A stretch of 64,000 nt of DNA from contig NW_027307649.1 in NCBI RefSeq assembly GCF_964275005.1, positions 1,131,001 to 1,195,000 of the forward strand, read 5' to 3'. Origin of the DNA: Diadema setosum (taxonomy: Eukaryota; Echinodermata; Echinoidea; Diadematoida; Diadematidae). Both the position numbers and the translations under genes were made by a program. The stretch's first letter is position 1; the number at the start of each line of letters is the position of its first letter. The notes below the pieces were generated by a model. The model was not told the origin of the DNA. It was given only the letters and a program-made list of their open reading frames with translations, and searched no databases. Of the stretch, positions 5,328 through 59,867 are shown in pieces.

Positions 5328-5369
<42 letters not shown>

Positions 5370-5854: not shown

Positions 5855-5968
5855 CTACCTTGGTCTGCTCTTCTCAAAGTCCTCAATGGCATTCAGGATC
5901 CTCTGGCGAGATTTCTTGGAGCTGACGGCACAGGACACCAGGCTACTGAGCTGCTTTGCCGAGTACTC
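5855..5968 (-). CDS. VPS50: VPS50 terminal coding exon
   Basis: Thirty-seven codons plus TAG. It continues WVKEHK from the previous exon into [24 protein letters not shown] and ends SRPR. The KKSRQ..L.AI.D pattern matches the C-terminus of vertebrate syndetin, so the C-terminus is complete. Confidence 0.93.
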   Translation of the reverse strand, partial: EYSAKQLSSLVSCAVSSKKSRQRILNAIEDFEKSRPR

Positions 5969-23900: not shown

Positions 23901-26900
23901 AGTCGGTGGGACCACTGACCAGCTGGACATAGCCCAGGACAATCTGGAAGGCTGTGTTGTGGATAGCACTGGTGAAGTGCATGTGCAGCTGGTCCATAGC
24001 TATCTGCATGGGACAATAAGGAGGGAATGGCATGAAAAGGAAAACTATATACATGATTATAAATTTATAATTAGTTTCCATTTATTACAATATTATAACT
24101 GCTCCTTCTTTATCCCTTTGTATTCCATTCCAAATAGCAATAGAACAGAATTTGCAAATGTATTTCAGACAAAGTTTCACTCAGAGGTTTTGATTAAATT
24201 GGCTCATTCCAATTATTAAAACCAACAAAAACAACTGACAGAAATGTGGATGAGACAACCAAATCAAGTATCACTACATCTTTGTTTAAAATTCATGGTA
24301 TGAAAGAGAAGTTAATACATGGAGAAGTAATAGCAACAAGAAATGTCGCTATGGCAACTGGTATGCCTCCGCCATAATAAATGGTTCTCCTAATAGGTCT
24401 ATAGTACATGTGGACAATGTGTGATTACATTTTCACAAAATTGGCAAATTAAAATGACAAGTTTGTCACAAATGTGTTGAATGTTCATCTTCCTTGACCT
24501 AGGTTTAATTGGATGAATAGGAGAGCATGTATTTGGAGATTTAGGAACTTTAACTTGACTTTGATCCATTCATAAGTTTATGCACTGAGTAATTTTCAAG
24601 GTATGGAGACAAAGTGCAATTTCTGTATTGAATAGTAAATTGTTGCCATTTTCATCTGGCCTTTGATCCTAAAAATCACTGTCAGACAGAACATGCATAA
24701 ATATGTAGTAAGTTTCAAGATAACTTGAACCATTTCCTAGTTTTGGAGGAAACAGTTAGTTCAGCACTTTCACTTGATCTTTGACCTTTTGACCTTTGAG
24801 CCAAAAAAAAAGAAAAAAAATTAAGAGAGAATCTCTATTGGGTTATATTGTACATGCATACACCCAGTGCAAAAAAATAATCCTGCTGGCATTGCATAAA
24901 TATGAGGGAAATAGTAAAATTTTGAGGTGTTGCCCTTGACCTTTGACCCCTGACCTTTGACCCCATGAACCCTAGATTCTCTAGATAATCACTGCCAGTC
25001 AGTACATGTATATATATACTATGTTCCATGAAGAAACCTTGAACAATTTCCAAGGCACAGAGAAAAAAGTGAAATTTTAGTATTTTTACTTGACCTTTTG
25101 ACCTTTGACCTCATGACCCCAAACTTTCACCAGAGAATCTTAATTGGGTAATACATGTATACACTAAGTTTCAAGAAAATATCTTAATTGGGTAATACAT
25201 GTATACACTAAGTTTCAAGAAAATATCTTCAGGCAATGCATAGATACACAAAACTATGGAGGAAATAGTGAAATTTTATGTATTTGACCTTTGACCTTGA
25301 GCATATGCACCCAAAAGTTGATAGGCACAACTTAACCACCTAATACACATACATATCAAGTTTCATTAGGAAACCTCACAAGGTTTTTTTAGTTACGCTT
25401 GCCACAAAATTCATTACAGACGGACAGAAGGACGGAAGGACGGAAGGACGGACGGAAGGACGGACGGACGGACAACCCGAAAACATAATGCCTCCGGCAC
25501 CACTTCATGGCGGAGGCATAAAAAACAATGATTAAACACTGAAAATCTGCGGGGAAAGAATGGATTTGTAGAGTGGAATCATCTTACATGTGTCTTGCCA
25601 AGGAGACGGTATGCAGCCTGTAACTTCTCGTAGTGCCTGATGTCAAAGCTGTTACAAGTCTTGGCCAGTGCGTGATCGAGTTGTTCCTGTCATGAGAGAG
25701 GAGCATATTAAGTAATCATCAAATAAGTAGACATTCATATGAATGTATTCAACAACAAAGTGAGAAGCTTTGTCTCCATGAATAGAAATCAAAACTGCAC
25801 ACACAGAATGCTATTAAAAGAGAAATTCAATCATACAGCTGCAAATATTCTCTGAATAGGCAGACGTAACAGTAGCCCTACATTAGCTGGTGTAACAGCA
25901 CCTTTACATTAACTGATGTAACAATGCCTTTACATTAGATAGTGTAACAGTACCTTTACCTTAGAAAGTGTAACAGTACCTTTACATTAGCTAGTGTAAC
26001 AGACTGAATTATGACTTGCTTTATGCAGCTGACAATGAAGCAATGAAAGCCTGTAAGCAAGCATCTTCATGACTGACGTCTTGGAGTCCCGTCCAAAGGA
26101 CAAGACGATGATATCAATATCGGGTCTTGCCTACAGGTCACAATTTCTGCTGCGAGCAATCTCCAACCAGGGACCTTAGAATTGATTGGTTAAAGTCACG
26201 TCTACTGAGCCTTTCAAGCTCTGTCATGTTTACATTTCAACTGGTTAAGTGGAAAAAGTATGAAGCGCTATTTTCAAATGTACACATTTCTTGTTCAATG
26301 TGCACTTATCATCAAAAAGGATAAAAAATAGTTCCTCTTACCTCTATAGTTTCTAATGTATCCTGAAGTTTCGAGCTGAGTTCACTGTAGCAATGTGATA
26401 TTCACAGAGAAGTGTTAATCACATGAGATTTATGAAAAGTCCTCATAAAAATGTTTGAAGGGCACATCTAATTATGGCATGCACAATCAACCACTCCAAT
26501 CCAGAAACATTTTGAGCCACATTCTTTTGTCACTTTATCATGCTTTAAACAATCATTTTATTTGTTGTTCATGCACTCTATTATCACCAGTTATTCTTTC
26601 TTTTTTTAATGAACATCACATATCTATATGTATTAAAGGTCACATTACCAACTCCTGCCAAGGTCAAAAGTACACTTTATCCTCCACTGTAATGCTATTG
26701 TAAGGTCATGAATTCCATAAAAGTCTATTGAAGATTTGATGTTGAGTTGGGAGGCAATGAGTGGAGTACTGCAATTTTCCCCAACACACACACACACACA
26801 ATCTCGGGGAGTCATGGGATTTTTTTTTTTTTTTTTTTACTATTTTATGTCCATCTGGGAATAATCACTGCAACTTCAAGTTATCTTTAACAGTTATCTT

Positions 26901-28977: not shown

Positions 28978-31900
28978 TATATATCATCCAAAGCAAAACT
29001 GAAACAAAGTTCATGCTGTATTCACCAACAGTTTATTTTGGCACACAAATTTTTGAGCGATTCACTCTTTCTCAAGTGTTGATACTGACAGAACAATTGT
29101 TCTCTCAGTATCAACACTTGAGAAAGAGCAAATCACTCGAAAATTTGTGTGCTGATATAAACTGTTGTTGAATACAGCATGAACTTTGTTTCAGTTTTGT
29201 TTTTGATGATATTATCACGCCAACACGTTGACAACTTACTCAATATATACATATGTATATATCAGAGTGTGTCCTGCATGAAAGCCATCACTTTCCCTGC
29301 AGACTGCAGAAGTAATATTTTTTAAGGTCCAGTATTTGAGTATATATGCACTTGCACAAAAGTGATCAACTTGTACGGACAGTCGCTTCGCAACTGTCAC
29401 CATGCAACAGCATAAATACCAGAAAATTTAAGACCCAAGCTTTGCTGCTGCTGCGTGTGGACTGTAGGCCCAGCACACAGTATAAACAGATACATAATTA
29501 TTTGATTAAATGTCTCCTGAAGTTCACACAATTCATCTAAGACTACCGTTCGTGTGAATGTCTAAGCACATTATCAACAAGCAAACAGGAAATCATACAT
29601 CACACTTAAAACTGGAAAAAGCTGCTAAAACATCTCTGACAAATCAAAATAATTTTGCGACAATCCTACCTCCGTCCATTCTTGCAGATGACATTTGCTT
29701 TCTGCAGGGAAGACTGCAGCTCCATTACTCTCTGTAACTCCTGTGGACAATGGCAATAAAAAAAATTAAAAAAAGTTTTAGAACTGTGTAATTTGTTTGT
29801 TTGACTTCAGACTCAAGCCAGCAAAGCTATACTGACGGAAATTTGTTGCAACAGTCCCTGGCTAAATTTTTGCTTTCTACCAAATGTTTGATAATCAGTG
29901 TTTGAAGGCAGTCAGTTTAGGAATAATCACAGCTTAAATAATCAGAGTATCAACATGAACAAAATTAGAAATCACGTATATGAATGGGTAACAATGTGTT
30001 GTGTTAAAATTGGTGACACTGGTATTATTGACGAGTTGAAATACTTGTTAATGTTGCCTTTTTGTTAGTTTCTGACATTGTTAAAGTTTGTTGTATTTTC
30101 CATTGAAAAAGTAACTGCATACACAAACCATAACTGATGACTCATTTTTAGTGTAGTTTATGACAACTATATCTTAAAAAGTCTAGTTGTATAATTGTTA
30201 ACTTGAATCATCACTGAATAATCCTTTTTAAGCCATTTGTGTAATTTTGTGAATGAATGCCTATAAATACAATACCATGGCTGTAATTCACAATAGGTAG
30301 TTTAAATTTAGTACATGGATTATACTGTATGAATATTGACTGCGCACCAGACATCTAACACTGAATGCAACCTGACTAACATTTCTGTCTATTTTGTGCT
30401 TGTTTCCGTACATGGACTAAATCAATCAAAGGATTTAATTTAGCTATCTTTGTGAATTCTGGCTTATATGCTTTTATTATTTTGCTTCTTGAACTTAATA
30501 ACAACTGCTTTAAACAACTCCTATATTTTGTTCATGTAATTGAGAAAAGAAAAATACCCCATGGCTAACTTACTTTGGTATAGGCAGACTGATTTTCCAA
30601 CACGACATCAGACACCTTCTTGGATACCTTGAAACGTAAAACAGATTCAATGAAAGGAGATAATTACTTTACGAAAGGCACAACAAGCACAATGACAGGA
30701 TAGAAAAGACTGCTAAGTACTGTATAGCTTGTTGTCCTATTTTGTAAAAGCATGTGGTCTTGTGTGGACCTGTATATCAAAATAAATATGTGAGACTGAG
30801 TCTGGAAAAAAAAAAGAAGAAGAAAATACACAATCAGGACAATGTAACGTCAGATTATCAGACCTTTAACTGATATCAAATTCACATATTAAAATTTTCA
30901 AGATGGAGCACATCTTTCTGCACTATCAATATCATGCTTTGTTTCAGACATCTTGAAGTTGCATTACTTTTAAAGTGAATATACAGTCATTGCATGTTAA
31001 TGTTGACTTCAATAGGAAGAACACAACTACACAGCAGCGGCATAGCAGCTGAAATTTCATCAATATTTGCCATCAAATGAGGAAGTTATGGATTATTTAT
31101 TAAAATTTCCTACATTTTACCAGAGAGTGACTTTATTTACAGTCCTGTACGCAAATTACAAGAGGTGATAATGTCATGGCCTCACAAACGTACCCACAAA
31201 AATTTCCACGAAATATCCATGACATGCATTCATGGGGAAAAATTATATCCTTCATATTCCACTGCTTTGGAGCTGTAATAAGTTAGCATTTATACAGTAA
31301 TAACAAATGGGAGATACAATTGTAGTAGCTGAATCATTGACGAAAAGAATGATTTTTATATGTAAACACCAATGCGTAAGTGTTGAGGTGATGACATCAT
31401 CCACTCTAATTTGCGTAAGTGAGTGCATCCTGTACATCACTATTTTGCTGAACTTCAAAACTCAGCAGCTTCCTTATTTTTTTTTTTATTCTGGTTTATG
31501 AAACTGTTACTGTTCCATTTATGGTACAACAATTGTATCTTATTCTTCATGAAATTAATTTGAACATGGAGCTGACATCCTTTTTGAGAGAAAATAATAA
31601 TTATGTCCATGCTTTCAGATATCTAATCTTTACTATTGTAGCCTTCATCATTTCTCCCACAAGAGCTCCCCAAGCTGAACTTGCTAGAACCACCACATGT
31701 ATCTTCACTTGCAACTTACCGCTTGCAGCTGACGCCTGAGCTTGTTTCTGTCTTCATCAATCTGAGACAGGTCCAACTGATCTGAACTGGCAAGTTTCTG
31801 GAGATAAAAGTATGCAACCGATGAATTACTTGATGTCTTAGTCTATATACCGAGACTGTTCTGGCATACATTCTCCTTATGCACAGGAAAGGCAGTCATT

Positions 31901-34900
31901 AATATCAGACTTTAACAACAACGACTCTATCAATAATTGATTTCATATACAATGCCTTTTTATTTTGTGTTATTAAAAGCATCTAAAAAATCTTGTAACT
32001 TTGGTTACGAAACATTCTTTTTATATTGTACTAAATGCATTATCATACATGGAGAATCAAAAAATGAAATGAAGTATTATCCCTGCAATATAGTATTCTT
32101 GACTCAAAATGTCTTGCTTCATTTGGCTTTTGATGTGTGAAATAAGAAGCTAAAAAAGAAAAAAAGAATTGGACAGTTTTTAAGTCTTAAGAAATATTAC
32201 ACATTAAACTTGATCTTTCCGTGTCTCCAAAATAAAAATAAAAATAAAAGGGCAATAAGCAGAGGACATCTTCCAGGGTTTGATTGGAAAGGTCAAAGGT
32301 CAAATTTACCTGCAATTCATAGTCGCTACTGTCAAAGGACTCCCCAGTGAAGTACTCTTCCTCAATACTGGCTATTACCTGTGTTTCAAACAAAAAGAAA
32401 ATGCTGCTACAACAAGCTAACACTGAGTCAAAATAAAGTAGAACATAGCAGATTTTGCTTACTATCTATGTATGTCCCTGCAAATCTTCAAAACTTCCGA
32501 TAGTATTGATGATTCAATCTCCACATGTATCTTTCTTAAAATGAGAAGTCACATCACGAGTCGTCATGCGCAAGTCGTAGGGTTCAGACATGTTTCTGGG
32601 AAGGCTTCCATCACTCATTTTCTCCCACCATTTTTCCCTTGTCGTCATCGGTGCTATTAGCATGCAGAATACCTCTCATTTCTCAAGCCATGTCAGAAAT
32701 TCCAAAAACGTATAAGTTACAAACTCCCAAATATCTGACAAAACTGTCAAAATCAAGTAAAAAATAACAGGGAACAGCAATGCAGAGGGATCTTTTACAA
32801 ACAAGCATAAGAACATTGAAGCTCCCACCTCAACCAGTGCTACAACCAGTTCCCTCATCCAGTATCAAGCAAAATTGAAAACCTTAAAAAAAAAAGGCAT
32901 CGCTGGAACTGCACAAAAGAAAGCAAAATCTTATCTGAGATTGGATTTCTGAAAAACAGAACAACATCATTACCACTGACAGTACCATTACTACTATCAT
33001 TATCATGAATGCTTTAAATAGCTAAAACTGAACTGCTGGACTTCTATGCAATACTAAGAATACAGTCTAAATATTATGCCATTTCACATCTGAAATACCA
33101 CATCACAAATATAGTACCACTGAAATTGAATTGTTCAATGTTCCAGTGACAAGGACATACCTCAGCTTCTTCCACTGGGTCATTAGAAAATTCTCTGTCC
33201 TCCTGAAGAAGACAAGAAAGGAAGAGGCAATAAGATTTTTTTTTTTTTTATAACGGAAAACTCCCACATTACTAGTGTTCTTCTCAACAATGCATGTTAC
33301 AAAACAATACCTGACACATATTGATAAAAATTACTACTTACGCACAGATAAATCTACAAGTGGCTGCGAAAAAAGAGTTGATAATTCAAGCGATGATTTC
33401 ATCACTATTCCCCTTGATCATATTTTGTATGTTTAGTTTCTCTTCTTGGAACAATAACACATGTATGTTCATTTATGATAATTCTGCGTCATCATCATCT
33501 TTATCATTATCATTATTGTTATTTGTAAATAAGTTATATTCTATTATCATTATCATTATCATTATCATTATCATTATCATTGTTTTTGTTGTTGTTTCCA
33601 TATTTTCCATATTTTTTCAAGTTCCTGTTATAATTATTATTATCATCATCATCATCATCACTATTATTATTATTATTATTATTATCATTATTATTATTAT
33701 TATTACTATTACTACTTCTACTATGTTACCATTATTATCATTAACATTTCCCTTTTTTAAGTTCCAACCAAATGTTTTTTTTTTTTCAAATTTCCTTTGA
33801 TCCTCGAGAAGTATTTAATGCATTATGCATCAAATGTCTGCAAAATTTGCTTTATACATGTACACACAAAGAAGCAAAACATTATATCATGTTGACAGCC
33901 ACACTGAATGTATTTTGATAGAACTTTGAAATATACAATTTCACCATGAACAAAATGCCCCCCCCCCCCCAAAAAAAAAAAAAAGAATGCCATAGAATGA
34001 AACATTTAAAGCCAGACCTTAGTGTAGACTTTCTGTACAGGAGCAGCTGGAGGCGGGGGTTCATCGTCTGTTGGGCTCGTCTCCTCAAAACTAGCACTAC
34101 TACCACTGGCCTGATAGCAAGAGAAAGAGCAAGGTTCTAAATTAGACACAAAAACATTTGGGATAAATATCACTGTAACATGTAAGAGTACAAGGATGAA
34201 AACTTTGTTCTCCTCATCAATCCTCCTTTCTCCTTCTTTTCTTCTCTGCATCCTCCTCAGGGACAAGTGACAGTGGTTAGTGACAAGTGATCAGGCAGAC
34301 AAATCCTAACATGCAACTGGAATTTGTTGCAAGATTTAAACCTCAGCTCTATACCTTTGGCTTTAATTACAAGTAGAATGGTCATGAAACCAAAGAGTCT
34401 ACATAAAGATTGAACATGCTTACAACCCTGTGGGTGCTGTGAAATACAAATGTACACTGTACAGTTATTGGGATGGACAACATTTCAATTCTTAACATCA
34501 TGCCCAGCCCAACTTGTGCCATTCTGTCAGTCTGTGTTGGCATATTATATGCATTTGTACAGCCTCCCCTAAGCCCTCCCTATTGCTTTGTTTTGTTTTG
34601 TTCCGTTTTTGTTTTGTTCTTGTTTTTTTCTCCAACTGTGGTGTGTGGATAAACTTCCATGCTTTTAGAAGAGGAAATACAGTGTACACAATGCATCTTC
34701 ACTGAGTATTATACCCAGGGTCAACAAATACAAGTATCTGGGAGTCACCATATCTTAAGGACCTCCAATGAAAAACACACTGTCAGCTCATACAAGGCAA
34801 GATAAGGCTAGCAAAACCCTTGGGCTGTTAAGGAGAACCCTGTCATCGTGTTCCAAAGTTGTAAAATCCAAAGCATACATGAGCCTTGTTCGACTTCAGC

Positions 34901-37900
34901 TCGAGTATGGTTCTGAAGCCTGGAATCCCTATACTTCCAGTACTGCTGAAGTCTTAGAAAGAGTGCAGAAAGCGGCTGCTCACTTTTTCACATGCGACTA
35001 CGACAGATTCACATCAGCTTCAGGGCTTATCTCTAGTCTGGGGTGGGATCAACTGCACATACGTCGTCTTGACGCACAGAGCACCATGTTTTATACATGT
35101 AGCATACATCACCAGCTGGTCAACATCCATCTTCCTCACTCCATAACCCAAGCTCCATACATCAGCAGAAGAGATTATATACTCATACAAGCTCACCATC
35201 CCCGAAGCAACAACTGATTCCTACAAATTCTCTTTTTATCCCCGAACCACTCGCATCTGGAACCAGTTGCCAAGCATGGCAGTTACTGCCCCAACAGTAG
35301 CTGCCTTCCAGGAGGCTGCCCTTTCTGTCATCAGATTCAGAGGGTTGAAACCTCCTGTGGGTTCCATGTTGCTGTAAATCTTACAGAATTTTTTTGTGTG
35401 CACATGACTATTTTTATTGTAAATATGCTATGAGTATGATTGACTGTACCGCACCATGATCACCTAACTTACTGTCACAGCACATCCTACCCCAGTTTAG
35501 TTCGCGGAAAAAGCTGCTCGCCTTCAGGGATTATCTCATCAAGGTTCAAGTGTATCCGAATAGTCACTACCTACCACAGGGTTCGGAAATTAGCGATGGT
35601 CCGCTGGCCATTGGCCACCCGAAATCACGTCGGACTAGCTAAAAATCATAAAATTCTGAAGTTACTAGTCCATCTGGCCAGCCAAAATATTGCTTCAATG
35701 TCAAAATTGATTCTAAGTAGTCCGCCTGGCTAGTTAAAAAAAAAAAAGTTAAGTGCGACCCCTGCTCTAACCAGCCTGTCTGTCGTGACTGTAGTGTAGT
35801 CATCCCATACTACTTCTACTTCTACGAAGATACTCAGCAGGATCCATACATGTAAGTCAGGATGTAGGCCTAGTGCTAAGGAATTGAACTTAGGTGATTA
35901 CATGTAGGTGCTCATTTGCAGTGCATGCTTGTTGGTGCATCTATATATAACATATTATACAAATATACTTGGCCTTGAGAGTTTCTTGTTAAAACTATGA
36001 GCAGAGGTGACTCCAAACTAGTACTATTCACTGAGGCCCGAAGTGAATAGTACTAGTTTGGAGTCACCGAGGCCCATAGTTTAACAAGAAACTTGAAACT
36101 AGGCAAAGTATATTTGTTTTATATTTTGGATCAAAAATTTGAATAAAAAGTGAAAATCATTATAGGCTTAGCCACACTGCGGCGGCAGCGCAGCGCCTGC
36201 AATACGCAACAGTGCGAGAGATCGGAAATTGAAAAACGTAGTATGGTTGGGTGTTCATAATATCGGACACCTAACGTTTTTCTATCAATAGAAACGTGAA
36301 AAATCTCACAATTTGCCTGAAATTTTACTCACGTGTGGAGAAAATACTCCGGATTCACAAGCGCGCACTGAAAATGCGATCTGAGGTACGCGCTCTAGAT
36401 GGCGGCTTCGAACGCGTGGGGTGTCATTTTTTCCGCACTCAGTTGCCCGGCTCATATCGACCGACCACCCCGCCCTCTATTGACAATACGTATAAAGCGT
36501 ACTTAAACGCGTTTTTTTCGACAAGCTGCTGTTTTTTTCTAGTCGTAATTTTTTCCCCAATAATATTTGAATATATTTTGAATCCTTCGATATTACTTTT
36601 GAAGGACTGTTTGATGAATTTGACTTGATTTTCATTAGGAAACTTTTCATCGTAATTGAAATAAATTAGATGAGTCGGTTTGTTTTTTCACGGTATTCAT
36701 TTCTCGTTTCTGCATCAACTCGTACGGTCGTAGCGCAAGCGGGCGACAAAATGTTTATGTCATGTGTATGTGTAACGTACTGTGCACGATCGTACAAGCG
36801 GCGGTGACAATTTTGCGGTCAAAATCGTCAAATTTATTACGGAAGGATACTCTACCTCTAACAACGAGTCAGCAAAGGTAGGCCTAGTTATATGTAGTTA
36901 CACGATAAACCTTATTCGATTTTGCTAAATTTCGGTAATTTAGAGGGAATACTTAGTTGTTTTCGCCACATTTTACTTGGTAGCGTAGCCCAGTGAAGAA
37001 TCGAACACCGTTGCGCGTAGTCCCATGCGTACATTTTCTTTCTGTACGCGCAATGCCTTTATAATGCGCGGCCGGTCGTTATGGACCCGGTCGGTGGGTT
37101 GGACCCCTACCATAGTCCTAGCCGTGGCAGAGTTGCCCGTCGCATGTATCCAAGCGCTCGTATGGCCGCTGCAAACCTGAACAGGACGCGGACGGGTACA
37201 CTTGATTGTAAAGAAGGGTGATTGTGACATCATTTTGCAAATAGTATAGACTATTTGCAAAATGTCGTCATAAAAGTGACGTCATTTTGCAAATAGTACT
37301 TCATGGCGTATCAAACACACCAACACTCTAAAATAGTTCAAAATACCTATAATCACGTGAAGCTCTTTTAACCAATCAATGGAAGACAAATTTTTGATCC
37401 AAAATATAAATAAAAATATAGGCCTATAACTGTTTAGGGGCCTAGTCTATATCAACGTCACAACGAGTCGAGTAGGCTACATCTACATCTAACGTTACTG
37501 TACAGTACCGTCACCAGTGCCACCAGTGGCAGTGGTCACTAACACAACGTTAGAGACTCCAGCTCCAGTCATTGCCAGTCACTACAGTAGTTTCTAGTGT
37601 GGGTTGGGGTAACACCAAAGAGGTTACATATAGGCCCTATATAGAACCTCTTTGGGTAGTAACACTAACTGCGACCAGCAGCCCCTACGCTATGCGTATG
37701 GGGCTGCTGGTCGCAGTTAGGGAAACACAGCCCGCAGTGCTGGGCTGTGTTGTCCCCTCGGCCCCCGCGCCAGCCACAGTGCGGTGTAAACTTACTTAGT
37801 AATTCGTCACTGACACTGTGACTATCATTATGTACATCTCAATACATTAAGCAGTTTATCCATCTTAAACACTAGACTATAATAGAAATAAGACACTCAG

Positions 37901-41765: not shown

Positions 41766-41989
41766 GTACGTCAACCCCCTGACTTATTTATCATGATGTT
41801 GATTTCAGTGTTTGGTGCAACATGCTAGGGATGAGCTACGTTCTTTCACAGATTTTGCACATACATGTCTGCCAGGTTGTCTTCTGCTTGGGAATAGAAT
41901 TTTGAAGATGTAGTCCCATACCCTTATATTTCTGTGGTGTATGGAGCTCGGTCGAAATCACTTTGTCCTTGCTGGTGCTGGGCCAGGCG

Positions 41990-42615
41990 GGGTCGGGCTA
42001 ACTCGGCCCACGGGACATCTCGTCCCACCTGTCGAGGGTGGGCCGAGTTGTCCCACTCGTTGGTATCGATAGTGATCGTGAGCGCTTGTCTGTGTTTGAG
42101 TTTATTTCGTCTTTAAGACGTCTTTTCTATCCGTAATTTTGATGGAATTGTGCTCAGTGGTTTCTGTAAAGAATATTTGCCAACTTTTGGGGGATACAAC
42201 GACGTAAAAATGAAATTTCAGACGTTTTTATCGCGGTTCGCGATCCCCATAGGTTCACGTTCATTTCGCGCGGTGGGCTAACTCGGCCCAACTAAGTTTT
42301 AGCTGTTGTTTTGTCAGTAAATCTCCGTAAAACTATCAATTTTATCATGTATGAAGGTGTATTCAGGGTTCCTTCAACTAATTTCATCTTCGAGGGAATT
42401 TAATTTTCCACATGTTTGGGGAAATGTTGGATATTTGTTGGCATGGTTTCATCTTTGCCGTGTATCTTTTCATCTTTGCTCGCTCACACACACAGTGGCA
42501 GAGCTGAGCTGGCAGCGCCATGCCCACTCGGGGAGACGCGGCGGCGGGGCGCGGCGGGGCGCGGCGCGTGGGGCGCGAGAGGCAGAGGGAGCAGCCGGCC
42601 ACTCCGTACCCGTAT
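41990..42615 (+). repeat. Left long terminal inverted repeat
   Basis: Contains GGGCTAACTCGGCCCA at the tip (about 41,995) and again at about 42,278, an AT-rich middle, and a very GC-rich inner end (GGCGGCGGGGCGCGGCGGGG near 42,540). A frame of 102 codons across it is shared with the right arm, but it follows from arm identity, not from protein selection. Confidence 0.85.
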
Positions 42616-43418
42616 TAGTAGAAAAGAAATCAAATTATGTAGCAGATCATTCGATGTGAACTACATGAAGGTCATTATATGCATTTGATATTAACTGTTA
42701 AATGTTTTGTTGTTGCTGTTGTTGTTGCTGATTTTATGTATAGATCTGCGATCTAGCTCAAAAGTTATTTCTGTCCAATAAATGTTACCTTTTTTCTTAA
42801 TAAAAACAAACAAGCAAAAGTCAAAGGGGCGAGTCTGTTCGCAGTCTGTTCATGGGCATTACCGTGGTAATTAATAAATTGTTTGATATCCAGTGGTCAG
42901 TTATTTGACCTGTAGATATGGATGGTTTGGTTGAATGGTTGATATCATGAAAACAGTAATGAAATGTAGTGCTAGCTAGATTGGCCTTGTTTATGATTGT
43001 AGGGCCTACCTTTTGTGTGTACTTTCAAAAATAAAAAGGAATTGTTTTTGTTTTGATGACATTGCCATTTTTGCCATTGGGAATCCTTACCCTAATTCAA
43101 GAGAAAAATCCTCTGCCACCTATACCTGCACGATAATGGCCAACCGTCAAGTTCTTTTTCTTTAATTTTCTTTTTTGTAATTTTCTTTTTATATATGCAC
43201 TGTTGCTACAGTGTATATCTCTCTCTCCCTATGTTATGTATACTGTGATGATCTATTGAATCAAACTTGGACTTCATAGCTTAATCTTTTCCATGCCTTA
43301 GCCCTATTACATGTGTTAATCTTTACATTTTTATTTATTTGTACAAAACAAGGCTGATTATAAAATTCTCAAATCCTTGCTTGTCCTGCACTCATACTGT
43401 TGAATTCATGCATGCACA

Positions 43419-43449
<31 letters not shown>

Positions 43450-46400
43450 GCAGCAAAGATGAATAGCTTCTCAAATGGTCTTCCTTCTCAAGCACGGTAC
43501 TCAAAGTGTTACCGGTACCTAATTTGCAGTCATGCAGGGTCACAAAAGAAACATTACAACATGCAATGGTAGGCTTGGTAAGGTCATGCATATAAGCTCT
43601 CATCTTCCTTCACAAAAGAATCTGTTGTTTTGTGGCCATTGCATCCTTTCGACTGTTGCCCTGCCTGCCCTTGAATACAATGTACCTGTATGGCTCTTTC
43701 CAAGACTGCAAGATCACAGCAAATTTTGAATAATATTAATGTGAGCATGTAAAGTATGTTTTGTTTTGTTTTGTTTTGTCATTTTAACATCTATTACATA
43801 TTTCCTCTCTATTTTTTTTTTTCTTGAATAACAGAACATTCTCATTTGACTTGAAATAATACTTTCATTTTCAATTATCATATTACCAAGTATCATCTGT
43901 GTACAAAGCTTTCTTTCCACAACTGCATTGTAAAGTTCTGTATTTTTTTATGATTCTTCGTCTGGCTCTATAGATCGCCTACTGCCAATATTTCCGCTTC
44001 CTTTCCCCGTCTCTCTTTCACTCTTCCATCAACCCATTCTTTTCTTATGCGTGATGTGTTTGTCAAGTGTCAAATGAGATTTGATTTGAAACACTGCATA
44101 CTTCATGTGAATTGCACACCAGTATTTTTTTTTTTCCGAATTCATATTTACATAGAACAACTAGTGTGTGCATATCTACACTGATGTTCAATGTAGACAA
44201 ATTTGATATCTTTAATTAAAAAAAAAAGTCTCAAGTAGTGCTGTACTATGGATATCGAAATGTTGGTGATGATAGTGGCTCTGATTATTTGTAGTAGTAA
44301 AGAATTATTTGATTACGAATTTAGTGATCATGATTTTAACAAAAGGTGACAGACACAATTTCCCATTGATAGTGTCCTTTGAAATGCCGGGTTTTTTCAC
44401 TCTTTTCCCCTAAATATTCCCCAAAGTGTTGATTGCATAGTTGAATAACAACTCTAAGAACATGAAGAATGCAACAGCTCGCGTGTGTGGAATGAGGATG
44501 CCCTCGCATTTGTTTATGTGACAGTGGATGAATTGTTATTATCTCCAAAATAGCAAAAAATTTGGAGAGGGAGGTGCTCCGCTGACACTGAAAATTAGAT
44601 TTTGCTCACTATAAGTTCGATATCTTGTCTGATCACCTCCAAATTTGATGTCGTTTCCCGAAACTTATTACGCATGCATACGTTGTATAAGATATGTTTA
44701 ATTAGTGTTAAAGTATTTTGGTTACCATGGCAACAAATAAACATAAGCAAGTTCCGTTTCACATTTTCACCCTTTTTAGCTTGTTACTTATTATTTTATG
44801 TATTCACAACATAAAGTAATATATATAATAAAGTATTTAATTATGTTTGAAAAAAGCTACAGCGCCCTCTTGTGTTTTGTCTTAATTTTTTTTTCTGTGG
44901 TAAACACCATTTTCTTAAGATTTGGACCTGTAAATGCTCCAAAAGGTTAAAATGAAGTTCAAATGTGTCTTGATATGTCTAGATAGAAATCAACAGCAAA
45001 AACTAGTTGCAATTTCGCCTAAACTGCCCGACATATGCCTTAAAATTAGTTAATTTAATATTCTCTTTGTTTTCTTTGTATTTTGACAAATTGCTCCGTC
45101 TTTGTGGTTTCCAAGAAAAGTTTTGATGGTGCCATTTTGTCGAGTATGTCTTGATTTACATTTGTTCCACATTTCAGAGCAATTGATAAAAAATATTGAA
45201 ATTATAGAGGGAGCGGATTGTGCCCTCCATGGTTTACCGAGCTTAAAAAAGGTATTCGGAGTTATGAGGGTTAACGGCTGATACTGAGACTAAGCTACTT
45301 CTCTTGAATTGCTATCATAGCAAAATATCATCTACAGATACATACCATTTCAAAATGCATAAGCAGAATTTGTCCCTTTAAGTGGTACCAATATCGTAAA
45401 AATCTGGTCTTGGCCCATGGACTAATTCTTCTACTCCGGAGGGATCCTAACCAGGAATGCAGGTATTGATCAGCCTGCCTGTTATTCCACAAGTCCTTCA
45501 TTATTGTACCTGATTTCAGAATTCTTGTATGTGGCAGCTTGCCGGTTACCATGGTCACACAGTCTGGTTCTAAGTAGGAGCCCTGCTGGAATGTGACTCC
45601 TGATGAGCTTATTCTCTATGTATAAGTTGCAGCTGAACAAACTTGCTGGTATAGGCCCCATCATATTTCTAGTACCATAGCCCAATTCTAAACTCACCTT
45701 TGACTTCATGCTGAGACAGACTGCTGTACATTTTTATTTTGTCTGTACTATTTTCATGAGAAATATGAAAATACATGTAAATTGAAATTGAAATTGAGAG
45801 TAACAGGAATGGAAGAGACCAACTAAAATGTAAAAACCCAACTCACTATGACTACAAATGAAAATAAACTGGATGAAGGTGTCAACAAGCTGAGGTGAGA
45901 ACTTATTTCTTCTTTTTCTATGTCACTGTTGAACATCCCAATGTAGTGGCCGACTGGACAAGGGAAGTTAAGTTCGGACTACCGAACTTAATATGGAATG
46001 TTAAACAAAAGAGTAGGTGTGGTGTGAAAGGGGTGAACACATGAATGGGAAAGGAATGAGGGCAATAAAAAGAAACAGCATACAGGTCAATGAGAATGTG
46101 TGTCAACCTATGAACCTATACAATTACAAACTGAACAAAATATAATGATCTGAGATTGAAAAGAATGAAATAGCCAAGAAGCTCAACAAATTCAAGTTTG
46201 CTGTCTTACCGTGGGCCTACAGGCCATCATAATAAAATTTTAGGCACAGGGGTAAGAAAAAATGTGAAATATTAGCGAATGTTAAGCTTTGTCGAAAGTT
46301 CTAGGTGTTATAAAAAAAAAAAATCCCACCCCTTTTGATCTTTAATGCGATGTAGTTCCAAAACTAGTACTACAGTACAATCTCAGTCTCAGAGCTTACC

Positions 46401-47689
46401 TGGTCATATTTTCCCCTACCAGGCCCTACTAGCAGTATCCATCCTGCACAAGTCTGTATGCAATTCAATACCACAGAGTTTAATGGTCTATCCTGCCAGA
46501 GAAGTAATACCTGGTACGGTACTTGGGTGTAAAAGAAAGAAAGAACATACATGTACTAATGTAAAATTAATTTCAGGGCCAATAGTATTCATTGTTAGTA
46601 GCAAGGTGCAGTCTATATGACAATTCAATGATAAAGTGATAAGTTAGGTTGCTACATAGATGAACTTCGATCACAATGTAATTTACTAACAAAAGTTATT
46701 GCTTTATCTGCTGCTTTCGTTACAAGGTTGTATATTCCATTCATTTCAGTACCGGTATAACAGTATTTCTTCAAATTCATGAAATTCTTCCATCGAGATG
46801 TTTTTTAATGCAAACTTTTTGACAAATTGCCCTACATCGATGTCAATAATTATCTCTATAAATCATCATATTTACATAAACATTTATATCGATGTACGTG
46901 TAGGGCAATTTGTCAATCATAACAACAGTATTTCTGTTAGCAAAGTACATTGAATAAATATCACTTTGAAAACAGACTTCACCATAGTACGGGTACTAGT
47001 AAATCATTTCACTTTTCAGACACAAAAAGGTGACATTTTCACATAATAAAACTCATATTATTTCACAAATATATTCGTAAATTAAGGAGTAGTGTCCCAA
47101 CATAACGAATAGTGTCATCCGAGTCACGTGATAATTGCCAACAATACAGCATGCATCCAAATCGCTATTTTATGTGTGTCTGTGTGTTGTGTGTGTGTTT
47201 CTTTTTAAACGATTTTTTTTTTTTTTAATTCAGTGTCAATCATTAATAACGTTGATGCTGGGGGATAGACAGAAAAACAGCAAAATGACAACTGCAAACT
47301 GCACGAGGTTGGAATACATATCATTGAGTCATCCTGGAAAAAAAAAATATCAGAAAAAATAAAAGACAAAAAAAAAAAATCAGAAAAAAAAAAGAGTCAA
47401 GCAACCCCCTATATGCCCAGCCTTTAACAGAAACCCTTGCCCTTGGCCTTTACCTTGGCATTGGCTGGCGGTAGCATGCACACCAGCTCAGCCCAATTCA
47501 CGCGACGTTGCAGCAAAACACAGTTGAGTTGAAACAAGTTGCTCCCTCTCTAGCCCTCAGCTCAAAGTTCAAGACAATGGATAGGAAAATGCCAACTGAC
47601 TACTGCATAGAATTTACTTACGCGAGAAAATTGGGAAGTGCAGCAAATGACGCCTTTTCCTCCAATTTCAACCACCGCCCGTATCTGTA
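42616..47689. other. Interior of the long inverted-repeat element
   Basis: AT-rich, with no supported gene. It holds a T-run at 43,420-43,447, a poorly preserved reverse-transcriptase-like stretch near 43,600-43,700 (LSTVALPALEYNVPVW; weak), an unidentified pair of minus-strand frames at 45,328-45,709, and the 98 bp palindrome at 46,819-46,916. Microsatellite-like A-runs occur near 47,340-47,395. Confidence 0.5.
46819..46916. mobile_element. 98 bp palindromic element sharing the SINE tail sequence
   Basis: TTGACAAATTGCCCTACATC on the left, ACGTGTAGGGCAATTTGTCAA on the right, with further ATCGATGT / ATATCGAT pairing. The 18-base end motif TGTAGGGCAATTTGTCAA is the same as the 3' tail of the SINE at 2,977-3,232 (ATGTAGGGCAATTTGTCAATC). 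Confidence 0.7.
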
Positions 47690-48328
47690 GCGACGTTTGA
47701 CGGAGTGGCTGGCTGCTCCCTCTGTGCCGTTCGCGCGGGTGCCCCGCGCCGCCGCCCCGTGCCTCGCCGAGAGTGGGCATGGGCATGGCGCTGCTCAGCT
47801 CTGCCACTGTGATGTGTGAGCGAGCTGCTGGTGGCGAGACCGGTGAGGTGCGGATACGGCAAAGATGAAACCATGCGAACAAATATCCAACATTTCCCCA
47901 AACATGTGGAAAATTAAATTCCCTCGAAGATGAAATTAGTTGAAGGAACCCTGAATACACCTTCATACATGATAAAATTGATAATTTTACGGAGATTTAC
48001 TGACAAAACAACAGCTAAAACTTAGTTGGGCCGAGTTAGCCCACCGCGCGAAATGAACGTGAACCTATGGGGATCGCGAACCGCGATAAAAACGTCTGAA
48101 ATTTCATTTTTACGTCGTTGTATCCCCCAAAAGTTGGCAAATATTCTTTACAGAAACCACTGAGCACAATTCCATAAAAGTTACGGTTAAAAAAGACGTC
48201 ACAAAGACAAAATAACCTCAAACACAGACAAGCGCTCACGATCACTATCGATACCAACGGGTGGGACAACTCGGCCCACCCTCGACGGGTGGGACGAGTT
48301 GTCCCGTGGGCCGAGTTAGCCCGGATCC
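47690..48328 (-). repeat. Right long terminal inverted repeat
   Basis: Inverse of 41,990-42,615. Between about 48,000 and 48,240 it is almost base-identical to the left arm, with small differences such as the GACGTC-flanking segment. The GC-rich inner end is more diverged (indels around 47,760-47,850). Confidence 0.85.
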
Positions 48329-48559
48329 GGCCAGGCGAGCTTGGTGGAATTACAGAACCTACTTGATACTTGGTAGTTCGAACTCTTCCAAGCGGAGTTC
48401 GAACTGGAGATGGCGGCACAGGGTGGACTCAGCTGAGTTATAATAAAAAGTAAAAATAATCTAGGAATAAGAGTGACTGAATTTGGGAGATAATAATTAT
48501 CAAACGTGTTACTGTGTGAGTGTTACACTTTTACAGTTAAATTTATCTGATCTGTGTCA

Positions 48560-49899: not shown

Positions 49900-50175
49900 G
49901 TAAGTGAACGTAACCTAAGCCCTAAAGGCTTGGCCGAAGGATACCTAACACGTTAGATCTATATCTACCAGGACAGGTCTAGACTCTCCGAATCTCGCTA
50001 GACCTAATGTAGGCCCTACAGATCTGCAGTTTTAGTATTTTTGGACTTAGAGTCTAGTCTAACTAGGTCTATCTAGCTGTGTTGTTCGCCCCCCCCCCCC
50101 CCCTTCCCGTCTTGTTCCCGACAGTTAAAATTATTTCAGATGTGGAATTAAACGGGAATATAGATGTGGAATATA

Positions 50176-50348
50176 AAGCAAATAATCAACTTTTGATTTC
50201 AGGCAATGAGACAAACTATCACTTCCTCGGCGATCTGAATGTGTACGCTATCTTTCCTCAGCTGCCGCTTTGGAAAGATAGCTACATCCAGATCGCCTCG
50301 AAAGTGATAGTTTGTCCCATCACCTTCACCAACGTTGATTATTTGCTT
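50176..50348. mobile_element. Foldback element upstream of the SEC22A-like start exon
   Basis: AAGCAAATAATCAAC..GACAAACTATCACTT..GGCGATCTG..GCTATCTTTCC is mirrored by GGAAAGATAGC..CAGATCGCC..AAGTGATAGTTTGTC..GTTGATTATTTGCTT, with a loop of about 14 bp. Arms are about 80 bp with small asymmetries. Confidence 0.8.
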
Positions 50349-50611
50349 ACTATTTCAGTTGATACATGTAAATGCTTGTGTTAACCAGCATTGATAATAA
50401 TCGACCATCTACAGCTCCTCTTGGAATGATAAGTTTCAATCTCATATTGTTGGTGACAAAATTTGGTTCAATTTTGAATTTTCTATGTCTGTGATATATT
50501 TCTCTCAAATTATTACTTTCATTCATTTTCTTTCATTGAATTTGTGGCAGCGTGCTGTATCATCCACAGAAGGGATCATCCACTGCCGTCTATACAAAAA
50601 TCACGTCCTCC

Positions 50612-56900: not shown

Positions 56901-59867
56901 ATTTTATGATAGTGTATGTTTTAGTTGTTCTAAAAGCATTCTATTCAGACGTGTAATTTCCTGTTTTCAATGTCTTAATTTTGTTTAAGTGAATTATTGG
57001 ACTATTACTTCTGGACTTGTTGTAGCTGCTGGCTTGTGTAGTAAACTTGGTGCACGAGTCTTGACTACATACTATTTGTCTATACTTTAACTCACTCTGA
57101 ATTGAAAAGTGTTTCTGAAAATTGTGCAATTTAGTAATTGCTGATGGAGGATTTTTTTGTGCAGGTTCCTGAAATATTCAAAATTCTGATCCCAGCCGTA
57201 GACTGTTGATGTTCACATGTGTTGAATTTGCTATCTCACTCTTTGTGAGAACATTCATACAGTGGGAGAAATACATTCACCTAGAGGAAGACAGAATCAT
57301 TTTTACATTGTGCACTTCATATTTCATTAATGTTCATGTTTTCTCCCTTTTGCTCTGTTTAGTTTTGTTGTCGAAGATGAGGGATGAGGCTTTGAGAGCA
57401 TGTTGTTTCTCATGCTACAATGTGTCAGATTGCTGTCATGCTGAACTCTCTGCAGATTATTTTGTTCATGTAATTCTTCAAATGCATTTTGTTAGGAGTG
57501 AATGTGGGTCTTTTATCAAATCTGGCAGTATTGTCCCTGTATTAATGACAATCCTCTCAAAACCATTCCACTCTCTCCAGTGTGAGTAGGTCCTCATATT
57601 TTTCTTTCTTTGACATAAAGCTTCTGTCACAGTTATTACACCTGCGTGACAAATTCTGCTTGTTTTGATATCTTAAATACTTCCTGAAAATATTATTGTC
57701 TCTATTTTATGCCCTTTCTCACCACTGTTCACAGATTTTACGAGACCATTCCACACGCTAGACTGGATGGCGAAGCTACTGCTTGTTTTGTCAATACTTT
57801 GTGGCACATTAAATCTGTCACGAATCATTCTAGTATTGACATTTGGTACCAAAGCGGTGAGTATAAAACTCAGAGAAGTGTGTTCCTAAGAGGAGGACTT
57901 TCTACAAAACAGTATTCTCTACATTGTAGAAAAGAGTACAAACAAATATAGATTAACTCAATCTCTCTGTCTCAAAGGAAAACATTTCTGCTTGATAGCA
58001 GTGCTGCCTTTGATATGCCTCATGTATGTAGATGTCTAATAATTTCTATATTTCTTCTTTTCCATGTAACATTGGTTTAACCCTTAATGTGCCATCGCAG
58101 CTTTTAGTCAGTGCCAATGTGCTAATGCTCCAGTACCAGCTGTCTTAGGAGAATCAATGACAGGCAGACAAATAAATCTTAAATGTTTGGTGATTCCACA
58201 ACAGTGGAATCTGTCATGCCAGCATTAGATCAATAGTCATAAAATCATACCTTGGACGTGGGCTTAAAGTTATACCAAACTTATTATACTTGCCAAACCT
58301 GATTGGATGTTGATTCCAAGAAAGCCACATCTCACTCTGTCATTTGTGTGTGAACATGAGTGTGGCGTTGCGACTGATTGACAAATCGCCCCTTCATCAA
58401 CATAAATAAACACTGATTAAAATGTTTTAGTAGTAGCCATGATAAAAATCATCCATAGGCATACATACTCATTTTGAACTGCAACCAATGATCATCTGAT
58501 TATTGATACATTTCATATCCACTAGACTACTAAGCTTCCGCCTACAGACAGTGGTGGCTCCGATCCCTTATAGCAGCCATTTGATACTGCATATTCATTA
58601 AAATCAGTGATTCTTTCGTTAAAGCAATGGCATAGTATTGGTTGAGGTGAGGATTCAGCTTTTAATTTTTTTTAACCCATTGGCCCGAATTCACGAAGGT
58701 GGTACAAATGAAACCATGGTTTAAACCATGGACAAAAACCATGGAATGCCAAGTGTCGCATGGGATATTTCGCTACGAAATCAGTAATTTCGTCGATGAA
58801 ATGATTATTTTGTAAAGAAATGACAACATTTTGTAACTAAATGAACATTTCGTCCACGAAATGATAATTTCGTTAGCGAAACAGTCATTTTGTCGACGAA
58901 ATGACAAATTTCGTAACGAAATATTCCGTGTGACACTTGGCGCTCCATGGTTTTTGTCCTTGGTTTAGACCATGGTTTCATTTGTACCACCTTCGTGAAT
59001 TCGGGCCATTGAGGACAAGTCCCGAGCATATCCCGAGTACACTCGGGCAGGTGTCTATGGGAAATGCATGTTGTAGCAACATCAGTCCACCCTCAATGGG
59101 TTAAGATACTTGGAAATCACTCTATAGATGTTAAAGAGCATACAGTTCTAACAGGAATTCAAAGTTTTGTTGATGAAAATTGGTTTTGAAATGGCTGAGA
59201 TATCTAAAAACAAAGTAAAACAAAGCGATACTTATAAAAGCAAGGTCCTACCTTTTATTAGCCTCGCTTTGTTTTGGATATCTCGGCCATTTTAAAAACA
59301 ATTTTCATCAAATGATTTTATAAGCTTTTATGTATGCCAATGAAGGTCAATTTAGCAATCATTTGCAATAAAAATAACTTGACAGAAGAATCATCAATTT
59401 GAATGAAGTGTAGCTCTATGCTGCATTATGTTCTTGTGATGATTGATAATAATCAAATAATGAAATAATCACACATGCCATACATTGCATCATGTAAGAT
59501 TGTGATGGATATGTGTATGAAGATTATTGTGGAGTCAAATAAACGAGTGAAATTTTGTTCTTTTTTGCTTTTTTTTTTCCAGTATGAACCCGAGGAGCAG
59601 GTCATTGTCATCAAGGCCATGCTGACACTGCTCGTGTCATCGCTGCTCTGCTACCGCCAGGCCTTCACACTCTGGGGGACGGTGGCCAAACGTTCTCCCC
59701 GCGAGGTGGCCGTCTGCGCCCTCATCATTCTGTGCAACCTCTACCTCTACCACCTCTACTGGCGATTCCTCTTCACCGTCGCCTTCCACTCGCTCATCGC
59801 CGTTGCTGTCACGATAAAGTTGAGGGCGGGCTCCTTCGAGTGGAAACTTCCGCACTACACGGTATGA
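50626..59867 (+). CDS. SEC22A: SEC22A-like longin-domain membrane protein, complete, 5 coding exons, 336 aa
   Basis: Coding exons: 50626-50810, 51404-51567, 52609-52863, 57735-57856, 59583-59867; 1,011 nt including TGA, with all phases compatible and GT/AG introns. Residues 1 to about 117 are a longin domain: LKDGLPLSATTD, ILSRKAAHFPDRCSM, SSLGVCFITMCEESYPSVLA and FCFLDELQREF align with vertebrate SEC22A. VKLRPPYRISIEDL is the next conserved block, followed by a His/Gln-rich linker. Residues about 213-330 hold about four membrane segments, starting with LLLVLSILCGTLNLSRIILV. As in SEC22A and SEC22C, no classic SNARE helix is obvious. Human SEC22A is about 307 aa; the excess is in the linker. 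Family role: ER/Golgi traffic. Similarity is closer to SEC22A than SEC22C by eye, but it may be co-orthologous to both. Confidence 0.9.
51807..52222. mobile_element. MITE with TTAA target duplication (AAGTGCGTAGACCC ends)
   Basis: TTAA at 51,803-51,806 and 52,223-52,226 flank AAGTGCGTAGACCCGGT and inverted ACTGGGTCTATGTGCCT. 416 bp, no credible protein, although modest frames exist on both strands. TTAA points to piggyBac/Kolobok-type origin. Lies between SEC22A-like exons 2 and 3. Confidence 0.65.
53008..53102. mobile_element. Short inverted-end element (TTTAGTAGTAGAAGG)
   Basis: TAGAGTTTAGTAGTAGAAGG and inverted CCTTCTACTACTAAATATTCTA bound about 95 bp. First of three small elements packed into 53.0-53.7 kb. 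Confidence 0.6.
53135..53468. mobile_element. 334 bp DNA transposon derivative (GGTCAGACTGGCAAAAGATC ends)
   Basis: TIRs of about 39 bp: TAGGCCCGGTCAGACTGGCA.. and inverted TAGGTGCGGTCAGACTGGCA.., both continuing AAAGATC. The left end is itself a hairpin, because an inverted TTTTGCCAGTGTGACC lies at about 53,199. Flanks read AAT on both sides (53,132-53,134 if the tip is AGGCCC) or TA if the tip is GGCCC; the target duplication is ambiguous. No transposase. Confidence 0.75.
53586..53682. mobile_element. MITE, TTAACCCATTGAGGA family, copy 1
   Basis: Ends TTAACTCGTTGAGGA and inverted TTAACCCATTGAGGA. Internal order: GGACTGATTTTGCTACAACA, GCATTTCCCATAGACACCTG, then a CGAGTATAC block. The same parts, inverted as a unit, occur at 55,600-55,692 and in the interrupted copy at 58,672-59,104. 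Confidence 0.75.
55473..55692. mobile_element. MITE, TTAACCCATTGAGGA family, copy 2, with tandem duplication of its flank
   Basis: Element at 55,600-55,692: TTAACCCATTGAGGA at the left, degraded TCCTCAGTGGGAATAA at the right. The left flank and first bases are duplicated in tandem: GGTACGTAGTTCAAGAAAAA..CACTTGGATGTCGTTCTAAACC at 55,480-55,530 corresponds to GGTAGGTAGTTCAAAAAAAA..CACTTGGGTGTCATTCTTAACC at 55,561-55,605. The A-rich part differs in length. Confidence 0.6.
58372..58605 (-). mobile_element. tRNA-related SINE, copy 2 (diverged)
   Basis: On the minus strand it shows, in the same order as 2,977-3,232: CTATAAGG, GGCGGAAGCTTAGTAGTCTA (A box TAGTCTAGTGG), ATGGCTACTACTAAAACA, and tail GGGCGATTTGTCAATCAGT. 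The B box is degraded. No clear target duplication. Confidence 0.65.
58672..59104. mobile_element. MITE, TTAACCCATTGAGGA family, copy 3, split by another element
   Basis: Left fragment TTAACCCATT (58,672-58,681). The rest is GAGGACAAGTCCCGAG..TCAATGGGTTAA (59,011-59,104). Removing the insertion and one ATT gives a 104 bp element with perfect 12-base ends, comparable with the 97 bp copy at 53,586. Confidence 0.85.
58682..59007. mobile_element. 326 bp foldback element nested in a MITE, ATT target duplication
   Basis: Arms of about 90 bp start GGCCCGAATTCACGAAGGTG on both ends with few mismatches. ATT at 58,679-58,681 and 59,008-59,010. The centre is a run of small palindromes of the form ATTTCGTNNACGAAAT, repeated about six times. 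GG-start ends with a 3 bp duplication fit PIF/Harbinger-type MITEs, by family knowledge. Confidence 0.85.
59169..59312. mobile_element. Foldback element just upstream of the last SEC22A-like exon
   Basis: TGTTGATGAAAATTGGTTTT..GGCTGAGATATCT..ACAAAGCG is mirrored by CGCTTTGTTTTGGATATCTC..ATTTTCATCAAA. Arms are about 50-58 bp and the loop about 36 bp. Located in the intron 270 bp before the final coding exon. Confidence 0.75.

What the first reader, a model, noticed from the sequence alone, without database searches (positions are those of the whole stretch)
41990..48328. Mutator-like element with about 630 bp terminal inverted repeats and a 9 bp target duplication, no recognisable transposase
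Seen: two long, nearly identical inverted arms (41,990-42,615 and 47,690-48,328) and the direct repeat GGCCAGGCG immediately outside both (41,981-41,989; 48,329-48,337). Known: long TIRs with 8-9 bp duplications define Mutator-like elements, which can carry captured host DNA. Inferred: a recent, non-autonomous insertion of 6.3 kb between two divergent genes, or an undescribed family with unusual GC-rich inner TIR ends. The tip motif GGGCTAACTCGGCCCA is repeated about 280 bp further in, as subterminal transposase sites often are.
Basis: partly seen in the sequence, partly recalled or inferred. Interest (0 to 1): 0.8.

Follow-up and report, generated by a model that had tools for sequence, protein, structure and literature searches.

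The report
Parasitic DNA element with long arms
This 6.3 kb stretch is a recent copy of a mobile DNA family with long mirror-image ends and no transposase gene found in the copies read; it is probably moved by an enzyme encoded elsewhere, and it is an ordinary kind of thing although this family may not have been catalogued.

Summary
In detail: two inverted arms (41,989-42,607; 47,700-48,328) flanked by a direct repeat. It belongs to a multi-copy DNA transposon family. The tip 23-mer occurs 105 times in the 913 Mb genome (reversed-pattern control 0); the 100 listed places give 41 +/- pairs, ten of them 7.7-8.1 kb. Copy L014 is 99.6% identical over its full length, elsewhere, with another target duplication. 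Corrections: the duplication is usually 8 bp (32 spans: 19 exact at 8, 4 at 9, 2 at 7/8, 7 none), so the element is 41,989-48,328 with TSD GGCCAGGC. No captured gene was recognised: 76% of the interior is shared family sequence and 1,171 bp belongs to another dispersed repeat. Mutator membership is not shown: no transposase was recognised in the 21 of 41 pairs read in full, and 0 of 27 MULE and 0 of 52 P-type domain matches lie inside a pair. The 8-bp sites lean to T2/A7, as in hAT. Best reading: a recently active, non-autonomous, long-TIR, foldback-like DNA transposon of unassigned superfamily. A pair 51.7 kb apart with an exact 8-bp duplication may be a giant composite element; unproven.

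The parts
41981..41988 (+). left target-site duplication GGCCAGGC (8 bp)
48329..48336 (+). right target-site duplication GGCCAGGC (8 bp)
41989..48328 (+). whole non-autonomous transposon, 6,340 bp; L014 is 99.6% identical over its full length
41989..42607 (+). left terminal inverted repeat (tip GGGGTCGGGC)
47700..48328 (-). right terminal inverted repeat (tip, reverse strand, GGATCCGGGC)
41995..42009 (+). 15-mer GGGCTAACTCGGCCC, candidate transposase site 1 of left arm
42012..42026 (+). 15-mer GGGACATCTCGTCCC, site 2 of left arm (1 mismatch to the pattern)
42040..42054 (-). 15-mer GGGACAACTCGGCCC, site 3 of left arm, inverted
42275..42289 (+). 15-mer GGGCTAACTCGGCCC, inner site of left arm
48028..48042 (-). 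15-mer, inner site of right arm
48263..48277 (+). 15-mer, site 3 of right arm, inverted
48291..48305 (-). 15-mer GGGACAACTCGTCCC, site 2 of right arm
48308..48322 (-). 15-mer GGGCTAACTCGGCCC, site 1 of right arm
42608..44253 (+). left interior, shared with the 7.7 kb family members (element 1-2265 = L026 1-2241, 90.7%)
44254..45424 (+). 1,171 bp from one end of an unrelated dispersed repeat, standing in place of 2.6 kb of family sequence; among the copies read, only the window copy and L014 have it
45425..47699 (+). right interior, shared with the family (element 3437-6340 = L026 4861-7742, 92.9%)
46819..46916 (+). about 100 bp hairpin with 41-nt arms (73% complementary), MITE-like by eye; its ends also match window 3196-3232

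Best explanation
The feature is a recently inserted, non-autonomous, cut-and-paste DNA transposon of a multi-copy long-TIR family. A transposase made elsewhere in the genome binds the repeated near-palindromic 15-mers in the arms (inferred). It pairs the two slightly different tips, cuts at GGGGTC and GGATCC, and inserts with an 8-bp (sometimes 9-bp) stagger. Shown: tips, duplications, copy number, different insertion sites. Inferred: transposase binding and mobilisation in trans. The commonest form is about 7.7-8 kb and no transposase frame was recognised in it. The window copy and L014 are one sub-lineage in which 2.6 kb of interior was replaced by 1,171 bp of another repeat. The superfamily is unassigned.
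For: The tip 23-mer occurs 105 times, with 0 in the reversed-pattern control; the 100 listed places form 41 +/- pairs. Tips are fixed and asymmetric: columns 3, 4, 5 and 30 differ between left and right in 17 of 17 copies. Of 32 spans whose flanks I read, 19 have exact 8-bp duplications, 4 exact 9-bp, 2 match at 7 of 8 and 7 have none. Similarity stops at the tips, and L014 is 99.6% identical with other flanks. L022 and L033 each match L026 end to end at about 97%. Six long copies show mean pairwise identity of 0.963-0.996 per 250-column stretch, with no stretch standing out as conserved. No Pfam match over its cut-off in 30 frames of the window element and its edges (best E 0.0067, a pilin model).
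Against: No transposase source was identified, so mobilisation in trans is inferred. Seven of 32 spans lack a duplication. Only 21 of 41 pairs were read in full; of the rest, four were read in part (C16 19.3 kb, C6 51.7 kb, C4 53.4 kb, C10 25.5 kb) and the others not inside, so an autonomous copy with a transposase other than MULE or P type could be among them. A transposase split into short exons would also escape the reading-frame lists.
Confidence: 0.9

Rival explanations
1. Mutator/Foldback (MULE) superfamily: the element is moved by a MULE transposase.
For: Long TIRs and 8-11 bp duplications fit MULEs (PMC6446971). Four of 23 exact duplications are 9 bp. MULE domains exist in the genome (27 matches). 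Foldback elements are mostly placed in Mutator (PMC4079207).
Against: 0 of 27 MULE matches lie in a tip pair; the nearest is 742 kb from one of the 100 listed tips. The two MULE-bearing stretches fetched have no similar tip (best 7-10 mismatches of 22) and no inverted repeat of 20 nt or more that encloses the MULE frame, within about 3 kb either side. Most duplications are 8 bp with a T2/A7 bias.
Confidence: 0.3
2. hAT or P superfamily with unusually long TIRs (as Galileo is for P).
For: 8-bp duplications in 19 of 23 exact cases. Symmetrised position 2 is T 19 versus A 2, p = 0.00125 over the four positions by shuffling, the nTnnnnAn pattern stated for Hermes (PMC10368747). The window site GGCCAGGC differs by one base from GGCCAGAC, the first proposed P-element site (PMC10299278). 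Galileo has long TIRs with repeated THAP sites (PMC3688188). 52 P-type RNase H matches, several with long open frames.
Against: 0 of 52 P matches lie in a tip pair; the nearest is 124 kb from one of the 100 listed tips. The one P family looked at has no similar tip within the 5 kb read, but its ends were not reached. Only 5 of the 19 sites have both T2 and A7. 9-bp duplications occur. hAT transposases were not searched. The newer P-element consensus, ATRGTCCGGACWAT, fits the window site less well.
Confidence: 0.4
3. Transposase of another or undescribed superfamily (Merlin, KDZ, or unknown).
For: Neither of the two transposase types searched sits in a family member.
Against: Only two domain types were searched; absence from non-autonomous copies is expected anyway.
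Confidence: 0.25
4. Inverted duplication of host sequence that is not a transposon.
For: The arms are CpG-rich and promoter-like in composition.
Against: Many copies with the same tips and different duplications.
Confidence: 0.01

Closest known systems
Foldback-type elements (Drosophila FB4, Tetris; nematode Tm1; the sea urchin foldback cited in PMC4079207)
   Same: Long TIRs with internal repeats, 8-10 bp duplications, non-autonomous copies (PMC4079207, PMC3169594, PMC8277862; passages read)
   Different: No sequence comparison was possible. Here there are four dispersed 15-mers per arm; Tandem Repeats Finder listed only one overlap of 2.1 copies of 17 bp at the right tip and a GC-rich run at the inner left arm, not a long tandem array.
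Galileo (P superfamily)
   Same: Very long TIRs with repeated transposase-binding sites (PMC3688188, passages read)
   Different: No P-type match inside any pair; 8-9 bp duplications rather than the 7 bp that I recall for Galileo
hAT elements such as Hermes
   Same: 8-bp target with nTnnnnAn bias, subterminal repeats near the tips (PMC10368747, passages read)
   Different: Hermes TIRs are 17 bp; here about 630 bp; 9-bp duplications also occur here
Pack-TIR / Pack-MULE elements (PMC8277862, passages read)
   Same: TIR transposon whose interior is partly foreign to the family
   Different: The foreign 1.2 kb is part of a dispersed repeat, not a recognised host gene, and it stands in place of family sequence; the origin of the common interior was not traced

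Membership tests
Class II TIR DNA transposon | terminal inverted repeats at fixed ends in independent copies | tested here: met
   17 of 17 copies
Class II TIR DNA transposon | short target-site duplication | tested here: met
   8 bp in 19, 9 bp in 4, 7/8 in 2, none in 7 of 32 spans
Mutator-like element (MULE) | 8-11 bp duplication | tested here: met
   as above; range from PMC6446971
Mutator-like element (MULE) | MULE transposase in an autonomous relative with the same ends | tested here: not met
   27 PF10551 matches, 0 inside 41 pairs made from 100 of 105 tip places
P superfamily | P-type transposase in a relative with the same ends | tested here: not met
   52 PF21787 matches, 0 inside 41 pairs made from 100 of 105 tip places
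P superfamily | 8-bp duplication | tested here: inconclusive
   19 of 23 exact duplications are 8 bp, 4 are 9 bp
hAT superfamily | 8-bp duplication with nTnnnnAn bias | tested here: inconclusive
   bias present, p = 0.00125, but only 5 of 19 sites have both T2 and A7, and 4 of 23 exact duplications are 9 bp
hAT superfamily | hAT transposase with the same ends | not tested
   no hAT family search was run
Foldback-like structure | long TIRs with internal repeats | tested here: met
   about 630 bp arms, four 15-mers per arm
Pack-TIR | captured non-TE host sequence | tested here: inconclusive
   the window-specific segment is part of a dispersed repeat with 52 matches, 40 of 195 candidates scored; the origin of the common interior was asked but not answered

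The most novel reading that the evidence does not exclude
The family's ends can mobilise very large DNA. The span C6:10340994-10392696 (51.7 kb), with a left tip, a right tip and an exact 8-bp duplication CTTGATTG, would be a composite giant transposon. It keeps only 44 bp of the left tip, has a full right end, and carries unrelated DNA in the 9.9 kb of interior that I read.
Probability: 0.15. Interest if true: 0.6.

Novelty: new member of a known kind. Interest (0 to 1): 0.32.

Why it matters
It gives a clean, recently active long-TIR family in what is probably an animal genome, with asymmetric tips that stay fixed while arms and interiors vary. That makes it usable for asking which transposase superfamily drives foldback-like elements and why such long arms are kept. 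The 51.7 kb span, if it is one element, would show how far such ends can carry DNA.

Tried and rejected
Rejected: chance inverted repeat; host inverted duplication. A captured gene was not recognised: the 44,254-45,424 segment is one end of a dispersed repeat at least 2.6 kb long. The interior extras of other copies look like separate insertions: L017 carries a frame with RVT_1 and CCHC, and L021, L029, L030, L031 and L015 carry segments whose two ends look inverted by eye.

Led nowhere: Rfam (0 matches at gathering threshold); tip, tandem-motif and arm patterns in viral contigs (0 in each of 3 scans); tandem-motif pattern in prokaryote genomes (5 stretches, actinobacterial by title, taken as chance); two arm frames against the protein database (0 of 3 and 0 of 34 candidates at E 0.01); the motif in the literature (38 papers, of which the 15 listed have unrelated titles). 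Strong homogenisation of the two arms of one element was tested and not supported: left-left identity between copies (0.977) exceeds left-right identity within copies (0.964); left-right between copies is 0.960. Mismatches between the window's two arms are clustered (8 in 50 bp, 8 of 20,000 shuffles); one search lists left-versus-right differences shared by 13 or more copies mainly in the same stretch and at the inner end. The host species was not identified; Syndetin_C at 12.5 kb (E 1.7e-5, below Pfam's cut-off) suggests an animal. My thought of sea urchin, and the TU elements, is recall only.

Full report
Observation. The inverted arms and the flanking repeat are present as described. The arms align over 606 columns with 580 identities and 51 gap columns. 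Of the outer part, 468 bp are ungapped with 13 mismatches. The direct repeat GGCCAGGCG is exact on both sides; a repeat of at least 9 bp came up in 14 of 20,000 random placements in the window. The tip motif recurs. Four 15-mers per arm match GGGNYWACTCGNCCC with at most one mismatch, and no other place in the window does. In the left arm they start 7, 24, 52 (inverted) and 287 bp from the tip; the right arm has the same arrangement (one search prints 8, 25, 53 and 288 because that slice begins one base outside the element).

A family in the genome. The window lies at C21:1131001-1195000 of a 913 Mb genome in 102 contigs. The left arm gave 44 matches, with 40 of 115 candidates scored, so this is a lower bound. 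The tip 23-mer with up to 3 mismatches occurs 105 times (51 forward, 54 reverse) and 0 times in the reversed-pattern control. The 100 places listed form 41 +/- pairs of 0.3 to 53 kb, ten of them between 7.7 and 8.1 kb. I read 16 other complete copies with the window copy, four more, and the flanks of 11 further spans, 32 spans in all. Exact 8-bp duplications are found in 19, exact 9-bp in 4 (L026, L038, L039, C2), 7 of 8 matching in 2 (L020, C11), and none in 7 (L015, L021, L036, L037, C6 16 kb, C4 53 kb, C10 25 kb). L020 and L037 were judged by eye from the printed flanks. The script placed the decayed right tip of L036 wrongly; by eye its flanks match at 6 of 8.

Ends. All 17 copies compared have a left end (G or A)GGGTCGGGC and a right end GGATCCGGGC; four columns of the first 30 separate left from right in 17 of 17. 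The window's ninth repeat base, 41,989, is thus the first base of the element and the duplication is GGCCAGGC. Between-copy identity of left arms (0.977) and of right arms (0.982) exceeds left-right identity within a copy (0.964; 0.960 between copies), so the arms are not being strongly homogenised.

Interior. The closest copy, L014 on C13, matches the window element at 99.6% over its whole length, in different flanks with the duplication GTCTGCCA. L022 and L033 (7,757 and 7,727 bp) each match L026 (7,742 bp) over the full length at about 97%. The window copy is the same element with L026 positions 2,242-4,860 replaced by 1,171 bp (44,254-45,424); 76% of its interior is matched by L026. The 1,171 bp are one end of a dispersed repeat of at least 2.6 kb with 52 matches, 40 of 195 candidates scored. 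Extra segments in other copies look like separate insertions: a retroelement frame in L017, and segments whose ends look inverted by eye in L021, L029, L030, L031 and L015. Arms are CpG-rich (observed/expected 1.24-1.46 over eight copies) while interiors are depleted (0.46-0.64), which suggests that the interior is older or differently methylated DNA (inference). Where the common interior came from was asked twice and not answered, so an old capture of host DNA by the founder is not excluded.

Transposase. In 30 frames of the window element, a few of which run into the flanks, no Pfam match reached its cut-off (best E 0.0067). Of the 41 pairs, 21 were read in full and four in part (C16 19.3 kb, C6 51.7 kb, C4 53.4 kb, C10 25.5 kb). 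Their frames of 100-110 aa or more were listed by script and looked at by eye: the longer ones look like nested retroelements. Only four frames of other family copies and one of the 51.7 kb span were put to Pfam. Short exons of a spliced transposase are not excluded. MULE domains: 27 matches genome-wide with 68 of 68 candidates scored. P-type RNase H domains: 52 matches with 70 of 70 scored. None is inside any of the 41 pairs; the nearest to a listed tip are 742 kb and 124 kb away. Two MULE-bearing stretches show no similar tips and no enclosing inverted repeat within about 3 kb. One pair of P-bearing stretches shows no similar tip, but the copies run past both ends of what was fetched, so their ends were not seen. 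The 19 exact 8-bp sites prefer T at position 2 and A at position 7 (T 19 versus A 2, symmetrised; p = 0.00125 over positions; 14 of 19 have one of the two, 5 both). This pattern is stated for the hAT element Hermes (PMC10368747, passages); P elements also have 8-bp duplications (PMC10299278, passages). It weighs against a plain Mutator reading but does not decide, since 9-bp duplications also occur and MULEs span 8-11 bp (PMC6446971, passages, section 6).

Giant spans. Two +/- pairs lie 51.7 kb (C6) and 53.4 kb (C4) apart. The C6 pair has an exact 8-bp duplication. Its left end keeps 44 bp of the tip, and its right end is a full, older-type arm plus interior (81-87% to L026). The 9.9 kb of interior read has no match to the four family sequences compared; one of its frames looks like a reverse transcriptase by eye but has no Pfam match at E 0.01, and its other frames were not searched. 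It may be a composite giant transposon, or an old element broken up by later insertions. The C4 pair matches at 5 of 8 positions only, in an AT-rich repeat.

Comparison. Structurally this is a foldback-like long-TIR element: Tetris has long TIRs and 8-10 bp duplications (PMC4079207, passages), FB4 TIRs of about 700 bp and 9-10 bp duplications (PMC8277862, passages), Tm1 composite TIRs and 9-bp duplications (PMC3169594, passages), and Galileo long TIRs with repeated binding sites in the P superfamily (PMC3688188, passages). I could not compare with Repbase or Dfam, so the family may already be catalogued. PMC8277862 reports no Pack-MULE in animal reference genomes and one, Ssk-FB4, in fly populations; nothing here shows a further one.

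Verdict. An ordinary kind of thing, well documented here: a recently active, non-autonomous, long-TIR DNA transposon family of unassigned superfamily.

Noticed in passing
C6:10340994-10392696 of the window's genome (ends L063, L064; interior L062): Left and right tips of the family 51.7 kb apart with an exact 8-bp duplication CTTGATTG; possible composite giant element.
   Followed up: partly
C6:39085064 and C18:36246021 of the window's genome (L069, L068): P-superfamily RNase H domains in open frames of 767 aa, 99.1% identical over the 5 kb read: suggests recent P-element activity in this genome.
   Followed up: partly
L026 (element 3936-4776): The 7.7 kb family members contain an imperfect palindrome of about 0.84 kb with ends GGCTGCGTTCACATAG, apparently a nested foldback element that was carried along.
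   Followed up: partly
10176-11433 and 22134-23399: Direct repeat of 1.27 kb, 97% identical, with internal repeats; a related third copy at 24339-25185.
   Followed up: no
28981-29212, 35949-36127, 50167-50357, 58678-59011: Self-palindromic stretches of about 180-330 bp (77-91% identical to their own reverse complement), perhaps hairpin MITEs.
   Followed up: no
36001-37500: CpG-rich stretch (observed/expected up to 1.74), a possible promoter region.
   Followed up: no
12472-12942 (minus): Weak Syndetin C-terminal domain match (PF10474, E 1.7e-5, below Pfam's cut-off), perhaps a VPS50 gene.
   Followed up: no
34759-35214 (plus): Frame that looks like a reverse-transcriptase piece by eye (no Pfam match): 9 relatives in the protein database, best 74% identical, none with a Pfam domain listed.
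   Followed up: no
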